Assembly (NCBI GenBank): GCA_016794525.1
Contig: JAEUJY010000148.1
Location: forward strand, 1-64,000
Origin: Myxococcales bacterium
Lineage (GTDB): Bacteria; Myxococcota_A; Polyangia; Haliangiales; Haliangiaceae
Direction of reading: 5' to 3'
Length of the DNA stretch: 64,000 nt
Shown: piece by piece, positions 3,341 through 9,919 of the stretch
Layout: each line of letters starts with the position of its first letter
Numbering within the stretch: the stretch's first letter is position 1
The notes under the pieces: generated by a model
Seen by the model: the letters and a program-made list of their open reading frames with translations, nothing else
Database searches by the model: none
Told to the model about the DNA's origin: nothing
Translations under genes and position numbers: made by a program

Positions 3341-5041
3341 TCAGCGCGCGGTGGTGAAGTCCAGCTTGAAGCCGGCGATGCGGCCGGTGTCGGCGTCGGC
3401 GTTGTCGACGACCTTGAGCGTCCACTTGCCCTTGCCAGCGGTCGCGCCGCCGAGCTGCGCCGGGGCGAACGTGAAGGTCTGCACCAGGTCATCGGCCGAG
3501 CCACCGACGTTGGCCGAGAGCACGGCGAGCTCGGTGCCGTCCTTGAGCAGCGAGACGCGCAGGTCGCCGCGGTAGGTGTGCTTGATGTCGACCGACGCCG
3601 ACAGCGAGGTGAAGGCGAAGGTGTCGGGGACGGTGATGTCGCTCGACGCGCCGGCCGCGGCGTTGTCCGGGATCTCGACGGCGGTGGTCGACTCGTAGGT
3701 CTTGACGTTGCCGGCGGGCGGCGGCTGCGAGGTGCTGATCGACAGGTTGATCAGCTGGCGGACCTTGGCGAGGTCGACGAACGGGTTGCGGCCGTAGCTC
3801 GAGGTCGACACGCCCTTCGGGGTCCACAGGAAGTCGGGGTGGTCGTCGACCGAGTCGGTGCAGTACTTGCCGCCGATGATCTTGCCGGTCGAGCCGAGCT
3901 CGAGGATGTAGTGGTAGGTGTCGTGGCTGGTGTAGCTGGCCATGCCGAGCGGCAGCTTCGACGCCGAGCCCTCGACCAGGTAGTCGGTGGTCAGCACGAC
4001 CTCGTACAGGCTCTTGGCCGAGGTGTTGAACTTCCAGGTCGAGCCCGACGCGCCGACGCAGGCGTTGGCGGCGGTGGCGGTGACCTTCTCCTGCTTGGAG
4101 ATCGAGTAGCCGACCAGCGGCTGGTTCCACACCTGATCCGACGCGGTGCGGTCCTCGATGACGGCCATGTCCTTGAGGCCGAGGAAGTTGGTCAGGACGA
4201 CGTGCAGCGCGCCCGGGTTGACGTCCATGCACTCGGTGTTGGCGTCGGCGCCCTCGGCGTCGTGCTCGATCGTCTCGGCGTTGCAGCGGCCGCCGAGCAT
4301 GAGCGCGTCGGTCTTGTCGTAGAGCGTGATGATCAGCGCCTTGATGTCGGCGACCTCGAAGGTCTGGCCGTTGAGCGTGACCGCGTGCTGGGGCTCGGGC
4401 TCGAGCAGCGACGCCGGGGTCCAGGCGTGGCACAGGCCCCACCAGCCCTGCGCGCCCTCGCGGTCGGACGAGTCGCACTCGTCCTTCTGGCCGTCGCCGT
4501 CGTTGTCGATGCCGTCGATCTGCTGGTACAGCGACTGGAACGACTTCATCTGCCACTTGGCCGCGGGGCCGGCGCAGGTGAAGTACTGATCCCAGTCGGC
4601 CTTGGCGGTGGCGCCGCACATCTTGGCGGGCTGGGTGGCGCAGCCGGCGGCGGCGTTGTACGCGGCGTCGTACTTCTCGAGCGGCGACTTGGTCTGCCGA
4701 TCGATCCAGCGGTTGTTGGTCGAGCCCTCGTAGGTCGGCCAGTAGGTGTCGGCCCACGCGGCCGGCAGGTTGGCCGGCGCGGTCGGGTAGCGATCCTTCC
4801 ACACCGGCTTGTCGAGCTTGCCCTGCTTGGGCAGGTCGGCGAGGCGGTAGTTCAGCGAGCGCGCGAGCTGCGCCGGATCGTTGTCGGCGTTCCAGGCGTC
4901 GCCCTTGCCACCCTCGCCCTGGGCGTCGGGGTTGTTGTCGATGTCGCCGGGCAGGTTGGCCTCGGCGTCGTCGGCGGCCTCGGTGCAGGCGCTGACGACG
5001 GGGAGCGACGCGAGCAGGCAGGCGGACAGGAGGCGCTTCAT
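3341..5041 (-). CDS. Transglutaminase-elicitor-like lipoprotein with C-terminal P/Homo B domain
   Basis: Start at ATG 5041 gives MKRLLSACLLASLPVVSAC, a lipoprotein signal; the frame is open further upstream but adds only a basic stretch. The central region has the hallmarks I know from the oomycete transglutaminase elicitor family (TGase_elicitor, GP42-like). These are GLCHAWTPASLLEPEP with the presumed catalytic Cys, VWNQPLVGY, and a YILELGSTGKIIGGKY...DDHPDFLW block. A DNDGDGQKDECD loop looks calcium-binding. The last ~100 residues (ITVPDTFAFTSLSASVDI...GDLRVSLLKDG...WTLKVVDNADADTGRI) are a proprotein-convertase P domain. Expected role: a surface or secreted Ca-dependent protein cross-linking enzyme. 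Catalysis is inferred, not shown. Confidence 0.8.
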   Translation of the reverse strand: MKRLLSACLLASLPVVSACTEAADDAEANLPGDIDNNPDAQGEGGKGDAWNADNDPAQLARSLNYRLADLPKQGKLDKPVWKDRYPTAPANLPAAWADTYWPTYEGSTNNRWIDRQTKSPLEKYDAAYNAAAGCATQPAKMCGATAKADWDQYFTCAGPAAKWQMKSFQSLYQQIDGIDNDGDGQKDECDSSDREGAQGWWGLCHAWTPASLLEPEPQHAVTLNGQTFEVADIKALIITLYDKTDALMLGGRCNAETIEHDAEGADANTECMDVNPGALHVVLTNFLGLKDMAVIEDRTASDQVWNQPLVGYSISKQEKVTATAANACVGASGSTWKFNTSAKSLYEVVLTTDYLVEGSASKLPLGMASYTSHDTYHYILELGSTGKIIGGKYCTDSVDDHPDFLWTPKGVSTSSYGRNPFVDLAKVRQLINLSISTSQPPPAGNVKTYESTTAVEIPDNAAAGASSDITVPDTFAFTSLSASVDIKHTYRGDLRVSLLKDGTELAVLSANVGGSADDLVQTFTFAPAQLGGATAGKGKWTLKVVDNADADTGRIAGFKLDFTTAR

Positions 5042-5212
5042 GCGGAGGCGTAAGAGCAGCCGGCGTGCCATCGGGCACACCCGCCGGAGCCTCGTGGTTT
5101 CGAGGTGTTAGATCACGGGACCGGCTAGTCGATCCGCCGGTGGCGCTGGGGTCGGTCGTTGCGGTCGCCGGCTGATCGAAAAGCCAGGGGGCCCCAGGTA
5201 TCGTTGCAACCT

Positions 5213-6139
5213 GTGCGTTGCACCTGGCTGTCCGCGGTGACCCTCGGGACGATCGGAGCGCTCGGGTGCGCGGGGGCCCGCCACGCCGGGCCGACGCTGG
5301 TGACGCGGGCGGCGTGCGCGCCGACCGAGCGCTGGGACGACCGGGCCTGCGTCCCCCGCCGCGCCACCGCGGCGCTGGCGGAGAGCGAAGCGGCCATCAA
5401 GGCCGCCGACACCGCGGCGGCGCTGGCGGCGCTCGATCGCGCGGCGGCCGAGCCGCTGGCCTGGGACGATCACGTGCAGATGTGGGAAGGCCGCGGCCTG
5501 GCGCGCGCGTACGAGGCGGAGGACCAGCCCACGCCGGCCACCGAGGCGGCGGCCCGGGCCGCGTTCGACCAGCTGCTGGCGATCGATCCGACCCACCACA
5601 TCTCGTGCGGCCAGAACGCCCAGGCGACCCGGCGCTTCGAGCGCACGCGCGCCGAGCTGGCCGACCGCGCGCCGCGCGCGCTGGAGATCACCTGGCCGCG
5701 CGACAGCACCGTCGGCGCCCCGGTGCCGATCGATCTGGAGGTGGTGGCGGACCCGGTGGGCGTGCTGACCAGCGCCACCGTCTACCTGCGGACGCGCGGC
5801 GAGTCGACCTGGCGCGCCGCCGACGTGCCGCTGCCAGCGCCGGGGCAACGCGCACGCATCCGGCTGCCGGCGATCGACGCCCGGGCCTCGACCGCGCTCG
5901 AGCTGTACGCGATCGCCCACGACCGCGCCGGCAACGACACGCTGGTCTGGGCCTCGGCCGCCCACCCGCGCGACGTCCCGCTGCGCTTCGATCCGCCGAC
6001 GCCGTGGTACCGGACGTGGTGGGTGTGGGCGATCGCCGGCGGCGTCGCGGCGACCGGCGCGGCGGTCACCGCCTACGCGCTGACCTGGTCGCCGAGCGAC
6101 AAGATCGGCGGCACCGTCGGGCGCGCCGTCGCGCCGTGA
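5213..6139 (+). CDS. Putative lipoprotein with C-terminal membrane segment
   Basis: GTG 5213 is chosen because a TATCGT box lies at 5199-5204 (8 nt upstream) and the product then starts RCTWLSAVTLGTIGALGC, a lipobox. The product is about 308 residues. The middle is helical and Ala-rich, then a beta region (APVPIDLEVVADPVGVLTSATVYLRTRGESTW), then one hydrophobic helix (WWVWAIAGGVAATGAAVTAYAL) about 25 residues from the end. Having both a lipid anchor and a C-terminal helix is a layout I associate with myxobacterial envelope proteins of unknown role. No enzymatic motif seen. Confidence 0.65.
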   Translation: MRCTWLSAVTLGTIGALGCAGARHAGPTLVTRAACAPTERWDDRACVPRRATAALAESEAAIKAADTAAALAALDRAAAEPLAWDDHVQMWEGRGLARAYEAEDQPTPATEAAARAAFDQLLAIDPTHHISCGQNAQATRRFERTRAELADRAPRALEITWPRDSTVGAPVPIDLEVVADPVGVLTSATVYLRTRGESTWRAADVPLPAPGQRARIRLPAIDARASTALELYAIAHDRAGNDTLVWASAAHPRDVPLRFDPPTPWYRTWWVWAIAGGVAATGAAVTAYALTWSPSDKIGGTVGRAVAP

Positions 6140-6145
6140 CCCGCG

Positions 6146-6997
6146 CTACTCGTCGAGCAGCGCGCGCTCGTCGACGGTGTGGAACCGGCCGCGCTCGTCG
6201 CGGGCGACGGTGCCGATCGCGATCGTCGGATCGTGGGTGAAGAACAGCCGGCCGCCGCGGGCCGCCAGATCGGTCAGCAGCGCCTGCTTCTCCTCGATCA
6301 GCTGCTCCGGGTAGCGGTCGTAGCCCATCGTGATCGGCACGTGGACCCACGGCCGGCCGGGGATCAGATCGGCGGCGAAGACGATCGGGCCGCCGGGCGC
6401 GTCGAGCTCGGCCAGCAGCAGCCCGGGCGTGTGACCGTCGCTGTGGTGGAAGCGGTAGCCGTCGCCCAGCGCGTCGCTGCGCGCGCCGGCGACCTTCTCG
6501 AGCCGGCCGGTGGCCTCGAGCAGCGCCGGCAGCTCGGGGATGAACGACGCGCGATCGCGGGCGTGGGGCGCCACCGCGCGATCCCAGGCGCGGGCGCCGA
6601 CCACCCACTGCGCGCGCGGGAACGCCAGCTGCGGCGGCTCGCCCTCGGCCCACGCGGTGAGCGCGCCGCCGGCGTGATCGAAGTGCAGGTGCGACAGCAC
6701 GATCACGTCGACGTCCGCGGGTTGCACGCCCAGCCGCTTGAGGTGATCGAGCAGCACGTGCCAGCCCTCGACGACGCCGTAGCGCTCGCGCATCGTCGGC
6801 GCGAAGAACGCGCCGATGCCGGTCTCGAACAGGATCGTGCGGCCGCGGTCGCGCACCAGCAGGCAGCGACACGCCAGCGGGATGCGGTTGGCGGCGTCGG
6901 GGGCGATCCACTTCTCCCACATCGCGCGCGGCGCGTTGCCGAACATGGCGCCGCCGTCGAGTCGTTGCGAGTTGCCGAGCACCGCGTGGAGCTGCAT
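6146..6997 (-). CDS. MBL-fold metallo-hydrolase
   Basis: The 283-residue protein carries the metal motif HLHFDH at residues 103-108, a later metal-ligand His in SDGHTPG, an Asp in FAADLIPG and a terminal His in FFTHDPT, so all expected zinc-site positions of the metallo-beta-lactamase superfamily are present. The N-terminus ([20 protein letters not shown]) fits the N-acyl-homoserine-lactonase/quorum-quenching-like subgroup of small-molecule hydrolases, but the substrate cannot be assigned. ATG 6997 is preferred over a start at 7138, which would run into the divergent gene. It ends only 7 bp from the convergent lipoprotein gene. Confidence 0.85.
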
Positions 6998-7037
6998 GGG
7001 CCGCAGTCTGCCACGGCCGCGGTGATATACGTCGACC

Positions 7038-8075
7038 GTGGCGACGTTCCCTGCCGGCTTCACCCCTCCCCCGCCGTCGCTGGTCCACGCCGGCGCGCTG
7101 CAGCTCGGCCGCTGGACCGGGCCGCCGGCGCGCACCAACCTGATCGACGCGCGCTACCGCCACCTGCCGCGCCCGCTGCGCAACCTGCGGCTCAAGGAGT
7201 GGCAGGCGGTGCAGGTGACGTCGCCGACCCTGTTCGTCAACGTCGCGCTGGTCAACACCAAGCTGGTGGCGCTGGTGCAGGTCAAGGCGTTCGATCGCGT
7301 CGCCGGCGTCAAGCACCTGCACGAGCGCAAGCTGCCGCCGTGGGCGTTCGCGCCCAGCCAGACGATGCTCGACTCGACGGTGGCGTTCCGCGACCGCACC
7401 AGCGCGGTGGCGTTCACCAACCAGCTCGCGCGCGGCCAGGTCGCGGTCGACGTCGACGTCGCGGCGCACGGCCACGGGCCGGCGATGCGCGGGCGGATCG
7501 AGCTGGCCACCGACCAGGGCGCGGCGCAGGTCGTCAACCTGCCGTTCACCCACGGCAGCATCTACTCGCACAAGGGGCTGTTCCCGGTGCGCGGCGAGCT
7601 GCAGATCGGCGACACCGTCCACCCGCTCGACGGCGCGGTCGGCACGCTCGACGATCACAAGGCCTACTACCCGTACGTCATGAACTACGACTGGGTCACC
7701 GCGATGTGGCGCGGCGACGACGGCGTGGCCCGCGGCTTCAACCTGACCCGCAACCAGTGCGTCGAGCCCGAGCGGTGGAACGAGAACTGCGTCTGGGTCG
7801 GCGACCAGCTGTGGTCGCTGCCGGCGGTGACGTTCACGCGCCGCGACGTCCGCGGCCCCGCCGAGGCGTGGCAGATCCGTGACGCGCAGGGCGCGGTCGA
7901 CCTGACGTTCGCGCCGACGGTGCCCGGCGACGTCGCGATGAACGTCGGCGTCGTCGAGAGCCGGTACCGCGGGCCGTTCGGCGTGTGCCGCGGGCGGCTG
8001 GCGCCGGCCGGCGGCCCGGTGGTCGAGGTGACCGATCGCTTCGGCATGGGCGAGGACTTCTGGCTGCGATGCTGA
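7038..8075 (+). CDS. DUF2804 family protein
   Basis: GTG 7038 opens a 345-residue protein with the features I recall for DUF2804: an early [22 protein letters not shown] block, a Trp/Asn-rich core ([15 protein letters not shown]), and the closing block around [15 protein letters not shown]...[13 protein letters not shown]. Members resemble lipocalin-like or hydroxyneurosporene-hydratase-type beta-barrels, but biochemical function is not known to me. The next gene starts inside its stop region (7-bp overlap), so the two are probably co-translated. Confidence 0.8.
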
Positions 8076-9919
8076 GGCCGACGGCGCTGCTGGTGGCCGC
8101 GATCGCGCTGGCCGGGTGTCCGCGACCGACGCCGCCGGCCGCGCCGCCCACGCCGGTGGCCCCGGCCGCGCCGGTGCGCCTGGCCGACGGCGACCTCGCG
8201 GTGTTCACCGCCGACGCCGACGCCGCGTACTGGTACGCCGACGGCCAGGTGTGGCGGCGGGCGTGGACCGGCGCCGCGACGGCGATCGCGCCGCTCGCCG
8301 AGCCGCCGCGAGCGCTGCACGCCTACGCGGGCCGGCTGTACGCGCTGGGCGAGGCCGCGCTGACCGAGATCGCCGATGGCGCGGCGCGCCCGATCGCCGC
8401 GGCGCTGCCGGCGTGGACCGTCGCGGCGCTCGACGCCGACGGCGCGTGGTTCGGCACCGCCAGCGGCGTCTACCGCGTGCCGCTGGGCGGCGGCGCCCCC
8501 GAGCAGCTGGCCAGCGGGCTGGGCGCGGTCGACGCGCTCGGCACCGACGGCGACGCGGTGTACGCGATCGCGCGCTCGGCCGCGGCCGACGCCGACACCT
8601 GGCGGCAGTTCCCGCAGCAGGTGATCGTGCGCGTCGGCAAGCGCGACGGCGCGGTGCGCACGCTGGCGGCGCGGCAGTACGGCGCGTTCGCCCCGCTGGT
8701 GCTGGACGGCCGCCTGTACTGGGGCAGCGCGACCTACCCGGCGGTGGCGTCGATCGAGCTGGCCACCGGGCGCCGCCGGGTCGAGCTGCGCGGCAGCGCG
8801 TCGGCCATGGTGACCGACGGCCAGCGGCTGCTGGTGGGCAGCGACGGCGAGGCGCTGGCCGAGCTCGACGGCGCGCGCCGGCTGGTGGCCGACGGCGTGC
8901 CCGGTCAGGTGCTCGACCTGCAGACCGCGCCGATGGCCGCGGCCGGCGACGGCGTGGTCGCGGTGCTGCGCGCGAGCGGCGACGGCGCGGCCGGGCTGTG
9001 GTGGCTGCCTCGCCCCGGCCGGACCGCGCACCCGGCGACCTTGATCGCGGCGGTCGATCACCCGGCGTCCCACGTCGCGGTCGACGGCGCGACGATCGCC
9101 GTCGCGTACCACACGCAGCGCGGCCGGGCGCGGCCGGGATCGCGCGCGACCCACGTCGTCCGGATCGACGCCGCTGGCCGCGAGCGCGAGCTGCTGCGCG
9201 GCGACACCGCCACCGCGCTGGCGCTGGCCGGCGCGCGGGTCGCGGTCGGCATCGATCGCGCGGTGTGGCTGATCGACGGGGCGGCGCCACCGCGCGTGGT
9301 GGCCCGCGACCTCGCCGCCGCCACCGGCGTCGCGCTGATCGGCGACGCGCTGTGGTGGGGCGACGGCAACGAGCTGTGGCACCAGCCCACCGCCGGCGGC
9401 GATCCGTCCCGGGCCTTCACCCCCGACGCGCGCGGCGCGTCGACGTCCTGGGACCGGGCGGCGATCGTGGCGGTCGACGACGCGGTGGCGTTCGGCACGC
9501 TCGGCGTCGGCGCCGACGCGATCCGCCGCTGGCGCGCGGGCCAGGTCGAGGCGCTGTACGCGCCCGACGATCCCGCGGCGCTCGGTGAGGCGCTGGTGCG
9601 CGTCGGCCCGGCGCTGGTCGCGACCACCAGCGACGGGGCGCTCGTGCGGATCCCGCTGGCTGGCGGCGCGGCCCGGCGGCTCGCGCTCGGCGACGAGGTC
9701 ACGCCGCTGCGGCTGTTCGGCGGCCGCACGCTCGCGGTGATGGCGCAGGAGCCCGACGGCGTGCGGCTGCTCGACGTCGATCTGCGCACCGGCGAGCGGC
9801 GCCGGCGGTTCGGGCTGCCGGGCAACGACGGCCTCGACGCGTTCGCGGCCAGCAGCGACGACCGCGCGATCTACGCGTTCCTCGCCCGCGCCCACTGGCT
9901 GATCGCGATCCCGCGCTGA
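8069..9919 (+). CDS. Lipoprotein, probable beta-propeller
   Basis: ATG 8069 overlaps the end of the DUF2804 gene and gives [16 protein letters not shown], a clear lipoprotein signal, followed by a Pro/Ala linker (PRPTPPAAPPTPVAPAAP). The remaining ~570 residues consist of repeated short strand blocks such as DGRLYWGSATYPAVASIELATGRR and DALWWGDGNELWHQPTAGGDPSRAF, the pattern of a six- to eight-bladed propeller (NHL/SMP-30-like). No catalytic signature. It probably acts in the periplasm as a binding or scaffold protein. The stop codon at 9917-9919 overlaps a two-hairpin element. Confidence 0.75.
   Translation: MLRPTALLVAAIALAGCPRPTPPAAPPTPVAPAAPVRLADGDLAVFTADADAAYWYADGQVWRRAWTGAATAIAPLAEPPRALHAYAGRLYALGEAALTEIADGAARPIAAALPAWTVAALDADGAWFGTASGVYRVPLGGGAPEQLASGLGAVDALGTDGDAVYAIARSAAADADTWRQFPQQVIVRVGKRDGAVRTLAARQYGAFAPLVLDGRLYWGSATYPAVASIELATGRRRVELRGSASAMVTDGQRLLVGSDGEALAELDGARRLVADGVPGQVLDLQTAPMAAAGDGVVAVLRASGDGAAGLWWLPRPGRTAHPATLIAAVDHPASHVAVDGATIAVAYHTQRGRARPGSRATHVVRIDAAGRERELLRGDTATALALAGARVAVGIDRAVWLIDGAAPPRVVARDLAAATGVALIGDALWWGDGNELWHQPTAGGDPSRAFTPDARGASTSWDRAAIVAVDDAVAFGTLGVGADAIRRWRAGQVEALYAPDDPAALGEALVRVGPALVATTSDGALVRIPLAGGAARRLALGDEVTPLRLFGGRTLAVMAQEPDGVRLLDVDLRTGERRRRFGLPGNDGLDAFAASSDDRAIYAFLARAHWLIAIPR

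What the first reader, a model, noticed from the sequence alone, without database searches (positions are those of the whole stretch)
3341..5041. Bacterial transglutaminase-elicitor homologue fused to a P-domain
The GLCHAWTPASLLEPEP, WNQPLVGY and DDHPDFLW blocks are those I know from oomycete GP42-type transglutaminases (the Pep-13 elicitor family), here on a bacterial lipoprotein with a proprotein-convertase P domain. A surface transglutaminase in a myxobacterium could cross-link its own matrix or prey proteins.
Basis: partly seen in the sequence, partly recalled or inferred. Interest (0 to 1): 0.5.

Follow-up and report, generated by a model that had tools for sequence, protein, structure and literature searches.

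The report
Bacterial cousin of Phytophthora GP42 transglutaminase
A bacterium of the myxobacterial group carries a surface protein that is very probably a protein-cross-linking enzyme of the same unusual family as the Phytophthora elicitor protein GP42, and comparison with its relatives suggests that the oomycete enzyme is closer to those of such bacteria than to the Vibrio one named as its source.

Summary
The reading is confirmed. Window 3341-5041 (minus strand) encodes a complete 566-aa protein with a lipoprotein signal, a TGase_elicitor domain (PF16683, 198 bits) and one C-terminal P-domain (PF01483, 43.5 bits). Its AlphaFold model matches GP42 of Phytophthora sojae (3TW5) at Z 30.6 over 316 residues. 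GP42's unusual adjacent Cys-His pair is intact (C204-H205); the histidine of DDHPDFLW varies in the family and is unlikely to be catalytic. The genome holds three copies: the window's 'class B' form and two 'class A' forms with the same four-cysteine insert as GP42. A review read in passages says GP42 homologues occur only in oomycetes and Vibrio; I find matches in 103 of 377 Myxococcota genomes and 131 of 240 genomes of a second phylum (Bdellovibrionota by its named members). In a tree GP42 joins class A (100/94), and the one Vibrio sequence available falls among the Bdellovibrionota-type rows. A GP42-Vibrio pair is rejected (AU p 0.003); GP42 with that whole side is not (p 0.23). Cross-linking activity, target and calcium control are inferred, not shown.

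The parts
3341..5041 (-). CDS, 566 aa: GP42-type transglutaminase lipoprotein with P-domain
4985..5041 (-). signal peptide and lipobox (residues 1-19, VVSA-C19)
   Evidence: sequence; by eye, no signal-peptide program was run
3728..4900 (-). TGase_elicitor fold, residues 48-438 (span of the structural alignment to 3TW5)
   Evidence: Z 30.6, rmsd 2.8, 316 residues; Pfam best stretch 198-435
4490..4507 (-). DNDGDG (residues 179-184), DxDxDG motif 20 residues before the catalytic Cys; possible calcium loop
   Evidence: sequence; motif in 19 of 36 class B rows, missing in the nearest relatives L006-L010; model confidence under 50 at 191-193 and 195-201
4427..4432 (-). C204-H205, the adjacent Cys-His active-site pair
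   Evidence: Cys in 88 of 89 rows, the exception being the 3TW5 chain with Ser; His in 88 of 89; role from PMC10318531
4346..4348 (-). D232, Asp on a helix; candidate third active-site residue
   Evidence: 89 of 89 rows; helix 230-240
4217..4225 (-). D273-V-N275, candidate active-site Asp/Asn just before helix 276-289
   Evidence: N275 89 of 89, D273 87 of 89 rows; helix
4229..4285 (-). C253...C271, probable structural disulphide pair
   Evidence: both replaced in GP42 and in L010
4094..4132 (-). Pep-13-equivalent stretch VWNQPLVGYSISK (residues 304-316)
   Evidence: sequence; Pep-13 sequence from PMC9879208
3356..3604 (-). P-domain (residues 480-562)
   Evidence: structural match to furin and Kex2 chains, Z about 13-14 over about 120 residues

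Best explanation
The gene makes an envelope-anchored lipoprotein that works as a GP42-type transglutaminase. Shown: complete frame, family match, fold match to GP42, intact Cys-His pair and other conserved core residues, one P-domain, a lipobox by eye. Inferred: C204, activated by the neighbouring H205 and an Asp/Asn, attacks a protein glutamine and passes the acyl group to a lysine or other amine, so welding proteins outside the cell membrane together. The P-domain probably steadies the enzyme or holds it to its substrate. The DxDxDG loop just before the active site may bind calcium and tie activity to external calcium. It probably acts alone, on the cell's own surface matrix or on prey material at the surface; the data do not separate these two.
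For: Pfam and PDB sequence matches; fold match Z 30.6 from a model of mean pLDDT 83.7; Cys-His and other core residues kept over 89 rows; active-site description of GP42 (PMC10318531, passages); P-domain in 30 of 39 aligned members; GP42 described as a calcium-dependent transglutaminase (PMC9879208, passages).
Against: I found no assay of a myxobacterial member (searches, listings only). Papain-like folds also host proteases and deamidases (PMC10318531, passages). The loop at 191-201 next to the active site is modelled mostly under pLDDT 50. The DxDxD motif is absent from the closest relatives L006-L010 and from 17 of 36 class B rows, so a calcium role there is weak.
Confidence: 0.75

Rival explanations
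1. A papain-fold enzyme of the same family that deamidates glutamine or cuts peptide bonds outside the cell rather than cross-linking.
For: The superfamily holds proteases, amidases and deamidases besides transglutaminases (PMC10318531, passages). The active site is homologous, not assayed.
Against: Whole-domain similarity to a protein described as a transglutaminase with the same rare Cys-His arrangement.
Confidence: 0.17
2. As to role (not exclusive with the best explanation): a predation tool. Two phyla known for predators carry many diversified copies, to cross-link prey envelope proteins or stabilise captured prey.
For: 103 of 377 Myxococcota genomes and 131 of 240 genomes of the phylum of G377 match; 7 to 13 separate frames in the four genomes G377-G380 (counted by hand); variable companion domains: P-domain, PPC, ricin-type lectin in Vibrio.
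Against: No other phylum was searched with the family model, so enrichment in predators is not shown. 274 of 377 Myxococcota and 109 of 240 genomes of the other phylum had no match. No shared predation gene beside it.
Confidence: 0.4
3. A catalytically dead adhesin that keeps the fold for binding only.
For: P-domain and lipid anchor would suit a binding protein.
Against: Cys, His, D232 and N275 are kept in 36 of 36 class B rows, which a dead enzyme would not need.
Confidence: 0.05

Closest known systems
GP42 cell-wall transglutaminase of Phytophthora sojae (3TW5; source of Pep-13)
   Same: Same fold (Z 30.6), adjacent Cys-His pair, VWNQP core of Pep-13.
   Different: GP42 has a four-cysteine insert before the active site, shared with class A bacterial copies; the window has a DxDxDG stretch there, a lipid anchor and a P-domain. 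GP42 lacks the C253-C271 pair. The Pep-13 equivalent is identical at 6 of 13 positions (counted by hand).
Class A myxobacterial TGase_elicitor proteins (L052 and L053 in the same genome)
   Same: Same family and Cys-His pair; same genome.
   Different: Four-cysteine insert; L053 has a PPC domain between the two parts of its catalytic domain and further PPC copies; L052 shows the catalytic domain alone.
Vibrio owensii plasmid protein WP_233902700 (L083)
   Same: TGase_elicitor domain, 142.6 bits, with Cys-His and VWNQP.
   Different: Ricin-type lectin instead of a P-domain, neither insert; groups with Bdellovibrionota-type rows.
P-domain of furin and Kex2
   Same: Same fold for residues about 445-566 (Z about 13-14, 117-124 residues).
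   Different: Pfam finds no protease domain here; the P-domain follows a transglutaminase.

Membership tests
TGase_elicitor (PF16683) | Score over the curated cut-off | tested here: met
   198.2 bits against 25
TGase_elicitor (PF16683) | GP42 fold | tested here: met
   3TW5 first at Z 30.6, 316 residues, rmsd 2.8; the following rows, at 13.9 or less, are P-domain matches
TGase_elicitor (PF16683) | Adjacent Cys-His active-site pair | tested here: met
   C204-H205 align with S290 (replaced Cys, my inference) and H291 of 3TW5; role from PMC10318531
TGase_elicitor (PF16683) | Third active-site residue (Asp on a helix or Asn on a strand) | tested here: inconclusive
   Candidates D232, D273, N275, D297 conserved; geometry not measured, coordinates not provided
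TGase_elicitor (PF16683) | Calcium-dependent transglutaminase activity | not testable with these tools
   needs protein
P_proprotein (PF01483) | Score over cut-off and fold of the furin P-domain | tested here: met
   43.5 bits against 21; furin/Kex2 chains Z about 13-14
Bacterial lipoprotein | Signal peptide with lipobox | tested here: inconclusive
   MKRLLSACLLASLPVVSA-C reads as one by eye; no predictor was run
Pep-13 elicitor peptide | Recognition by plant receptor | not testable with these tools
   VWNQP core kept, 6 of 13 identical to Pep-13

The most novel reading that the evidence does not exclude
GP42-type transglutaminases are chiefly enzymes of the predator-rich phyla Myxococcota and Bdellovibrionota, multiplied there and fitted with different surface domains. 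The oomycete enzyme, and with it the Pep-13 elicitor, came from a myxobacterial class A gene carrying the four-cysteine insert, not from Vibrio as a review states; Vibrio took its copy from the Bdellovibrionota side. Some myxobacteria should then display Pep-13-like peptides (up to 11 of 13 identical, L020) that plants with the Pep-13 receptor could sense.
Probability: 0.45. Interest if true: 0.68.

Novelty: new variant of a known kind. Interest (0 to 1): 0.5.

Why it matters
GP42 is the source of Pep-13, a well-characterised trigger of plant immunity (PMC9879208, passages). A review (PMC4915311, passages) holds that its relatives exist only in oomycetes and some Vibrio and that oomycetes got it from Vibrio. 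The bacterial family is far wider, and the oomycete form shares a specific insert with the myxobacterial class A form. That makes the origin of the elicitor testable again, offers bacterial enzymes for asking what GP42 is for, and gives a candidate tool of bacterial predators.

Tried and rejected
Conserved neighbourhood. Six window neighbours were searched against the loci: the gene at 5159-6139 has a relative in L006 and L010, the metallo-beta-lactamase-fold gene 6146-7138 in L007, L009 and L010, and the gene at 8066-9919 a weak one (30%) in L007. All frames of 150 aa or more were then compared between loci. Sets shared by four or more loci stay within near kin, or link distant loci only through members of very large families: short-chain dehydrogenases (29-41% identity) and protein kinases (29-31% to L033). 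I take those as chance neighbours. So no operon or target clue.

Mobile element: no match in 50,697 phage records (queried with the class A copy L052), no confirmed relative in the viral contigs, one plasmid record, Vibrio.

Catalytic role of the DDHPDFLW histidine: unlikely, as it varies.

NCBIfam gave no match. No promoter-like site; the one terminator-like site is at chance level.

Tree with few outgroup rows (72 rows): the GP42-Vibrio pair was not rejected (AU p 0.20), nor GP42 with Vibrio and four Bdellovibrionota-type rows (0.136), nor class A as a clade without GP42 (0.337). Only the fuller tree (89 rows) rejects the pair.

The original GP42 structure paper is not held, so its own catalytic residue numbers and its Vibrio sequences could not be compared.

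Full report
What is there. The minus-strand frame 3341-5041 is complete and codes for 566 residues. It scores 198.2 bits to Pfam TGase_elicitor (cut-off 25) and 43.5 bits to P_proprotein (cut-off 21), and phmmer finds GP42 of Phytophthora sojae, 3TW5, at E 1.6e-44. The N-terminus reads as a lipoprotein signal ending at C19 (by eye). NCBIfam has no match at E up to 1.

Structure. An AlphaFold2 model was made from an alignment of 39 sequences: the window and 38 of the 46 loci found (L012, L013, L037, L039, L045, L047, L049, L051 left out as frame-shifted, gapped, cut by contig ends or distant). Mean pLDDT is 83.7, pTM 0.73. The best solved match is 3TW5: Foldseek E 3.1e-22, VIA-align Z 30.6, rmsd 2.8, 316 residues. 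Residues about 445-566 match the P-domains of furin and Kex2 at Z about 13-14. Residues 191-193 and 195-201, just before the active site, are below pLDDT 50.

Active site. A classification of papain-like proteins describes GP42 as exceptional: its histidine lies directly after the cysteine ('CH' motif) and interacts with an Asp on another helix or an Asn on a strand (PMC10318531, passages). By the offset between chain index and entry numbering, the Ser printed in 3TW5 is residue 290 and the next His is 291; that the Ser replaces the catalytic Cys is my inference. C204-H205 of the window align there. Over 89 rows, Cys is kept in all but the 3TW5 chain, His in 88 (L090 has Asn), D232 and N275 in 89, D273 in 87, D297 in 88. 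The histidine of DDHPDFLW is H in only 27 of 36 class B and 16 of 31 Bdellovibrionota-type rows. C253 and C271 are both replaced in GP42 and in L010, which suggests a disulphide; one Bdellovibrionota-type row lacks only C271.

Two myxobacterial classes. The genome has three copies. The window copy is class B: P-domain in 30 of the 39 aligned sequences, 35 of which are class B, two copies in L015, and a DxDxD stretch before the active site in 19 of 36 class B rows and 1 of 31 Bdellovibrionota-type rows. The script did not count the stretch in rows with four cysteines; the looser count found it in 25 of 78 sequences without and 2 (L065, L074) with them. It is missing in the window's nearest relatives L006-L010, so a calcium role is only a suggestion. 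The other two copies, L052 and L053, are class A. Class A was named by its four-cysteine insert, so its 20 of 20 rows have it by definition; GP42 has it too, and none of the 36 class B, 31 Bdellovibrionota-type and 1 Vibrio rows does. The spacing in GP42 (C-x5-C-x8-C-x10-C) is nearly that of L055 (C-x5-C-x7-C-x10-C).

Distribution. Among genomes at least 80% complete, drawn from larger groups, 103 of 377 Myxococcota genomes match at E 0.001 or better, 102 over the cut-off, and 131 of 240 genomes of the phylum of G377, 130 over the cut-off. G377 is the genome of L048, named Bacteriovoracaceae; that its phylum is Bdellovibrionota rests on that name. 14 control genomes have none. Counting separate open frames by hand gives 9 (plus one below cut-off), 7, 8 and 13 in G377-G380, genomes of 1.9-3.8 Mb. 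No other phylum was searched with the family model, so I cannot say that the family is concentrated in predators; the protein scan of 84,980 species used patterns close to the window and is not sensitive to the WMGICHGW type.

Origin of GP42. A review states that GP42 homologues are found only in oomycetes and some marine Vibrio, with transfer from Vibrio to an oomycete ancestor, citing Reiss et al. 2011 (PMC4915311, passages); another calls Pep-13 apparently unique to Phytophthora (PMC7773600, passages). Over the kept columns of the 72-row set GP42 is 45.0% identical on average to class A (40.7-50.4), 41.0% to class B (35.2-45.2), 33.0% to the four Bdellovibrionota-type rows and 33.7% to the Vibrio sequence; in blastp the twelve best hits are class A (199-269 bits) and the Vibrio protein scores 113. 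In an 89-row tree built without the insert columns, GP42 and the 20 class A rows form one side of a branch (100/94), and Vibrio lies within an 18-row set of otherwise Bdellovibrionota-type rows (100/100). The AU test rejects a GP42-Vibrio pair (p 0.003) but not GP42 with the whole Bdellovibrionota-plus-Vibrio side (p 0.234). The earlier 72-row tree gave 97/82 and its AU tests rejected none of three groupings. Rows left out: from the first tree L012, L037, L047, L051 (frame, gaps, short) and the near-copies L069, L071, L076, L078; from the second also L062, L072, L079, L080 (identical over the kept columns), L028, L029, L044, L045 (long branch or odd insert, my choice), L039, L082 (cut short), and of L087-L115 the rows L089 (motif not found) and L091 (same gene as L006); L084-L086 were not used. 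Limits: one oomycete and one Vibrio sequence, GP42 is a long branch, and the Vibrio sequences of the original paper were not available. The insert and the tree together favour a relation to Myxococcota class A; they do not prove direction or donor.

Pep-13. The VWNQP (or IWNQP) core is present in 36 of 36 class B, 19 of 20 class A and 20 of 31 Bdellovibrionota-type rows. Against Pep-13 as printed in PMC9879208 (passages), the window has 6 of 13 identical, L055 10 and L020 11 (sequences; counted by hand).

Surroundings. No operon is evident. Relatives of the neighbours 5159-6139 (plus) and 6146-7138 (minus, metallo-beta-lactamase fold, 70 bits) lie near the gene in L006 and L010, and in L007, L009 and L010 respectively. 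Links between distant loci run only through large families, short-chain dehydrogenases and protein kinases. The genome has six P-domain places in all.

Literature. Searches for transglutaminase with myxobacteria and predation (1 paper, listing seen only), with Bdellovibrio and predatory bacteria (none), with Myxococcota, Bdellovibrionota, Myxococcus, elicitor (31 papers, 15 listed; of those only one, on Streptomyces, holds 'transglutaminase') and with Phytophthora and myxobacter- (1, listing only), and the searches on GP42, Pep-13 and TGase_elicitor (listings) showed me no report of this family in these phyla. A comparative genomics paper on Bdellovibrionota contains neither 'transglutaminase' nor 'TGase' nor 'elicitor' in its main text (PMC11656739). 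A paper on mycoparasitic Pythium reports TGase_elicitor domains in some CBEL proteins (PMC7720654, passages). Only open-licence papers were searchable; protein databases very probably already list many of these proteins as TGase_elicitor.

Noticed in passing
L046-L051, G377-G380: Bacteriovoracaceae/Halobacteriovoraceae and kin carry 7 to 13 separate TGase_elicitor frames in genomes of 1.9-3.8 Mb (counted by hand): an expansion in likely bacterial predators.
   Followed up: partly
L053:5687-7861: Class A copy in the same genome with a PPC domain lying between the two parts of its catalytic domain, plus further PPC copies.
   Followed up: partly
L083:1165-3000: Vibrio owensii plasmid gene annotated only as ricin-type lectin protein is a TGase_elicitor-lectin fusion on a plasmid typed as mobilizable.
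   Followed up: partly
L090, L045: Two relatives with Cys-Asn instead of Cys-His at the active site: possibly altered or dead enzymes.
   Followed up: no
L016, L023, L030, L031, L038: A shared stretch of neighbouring genes in one class B lineage, with a TPR protein in L016 and a short-chain dehydrogenase just downstream in L030 and L038.
   Followed up: partly
L006:7798-8736, L007:7482-9488, L008:2086-3021: A protein-kinase gene just downstream of the transglutaminase in three near relatives of the window (Pfam on L006 and L007; L008 by similarity).
   Followed up: partly
window 7038-8075 (+): DUF2804 protein (114 bits) whose listed frame overlaps that of the metallo-beta-lactamase-fold gene 6146-7138 on the other strand.
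   Followed up: no
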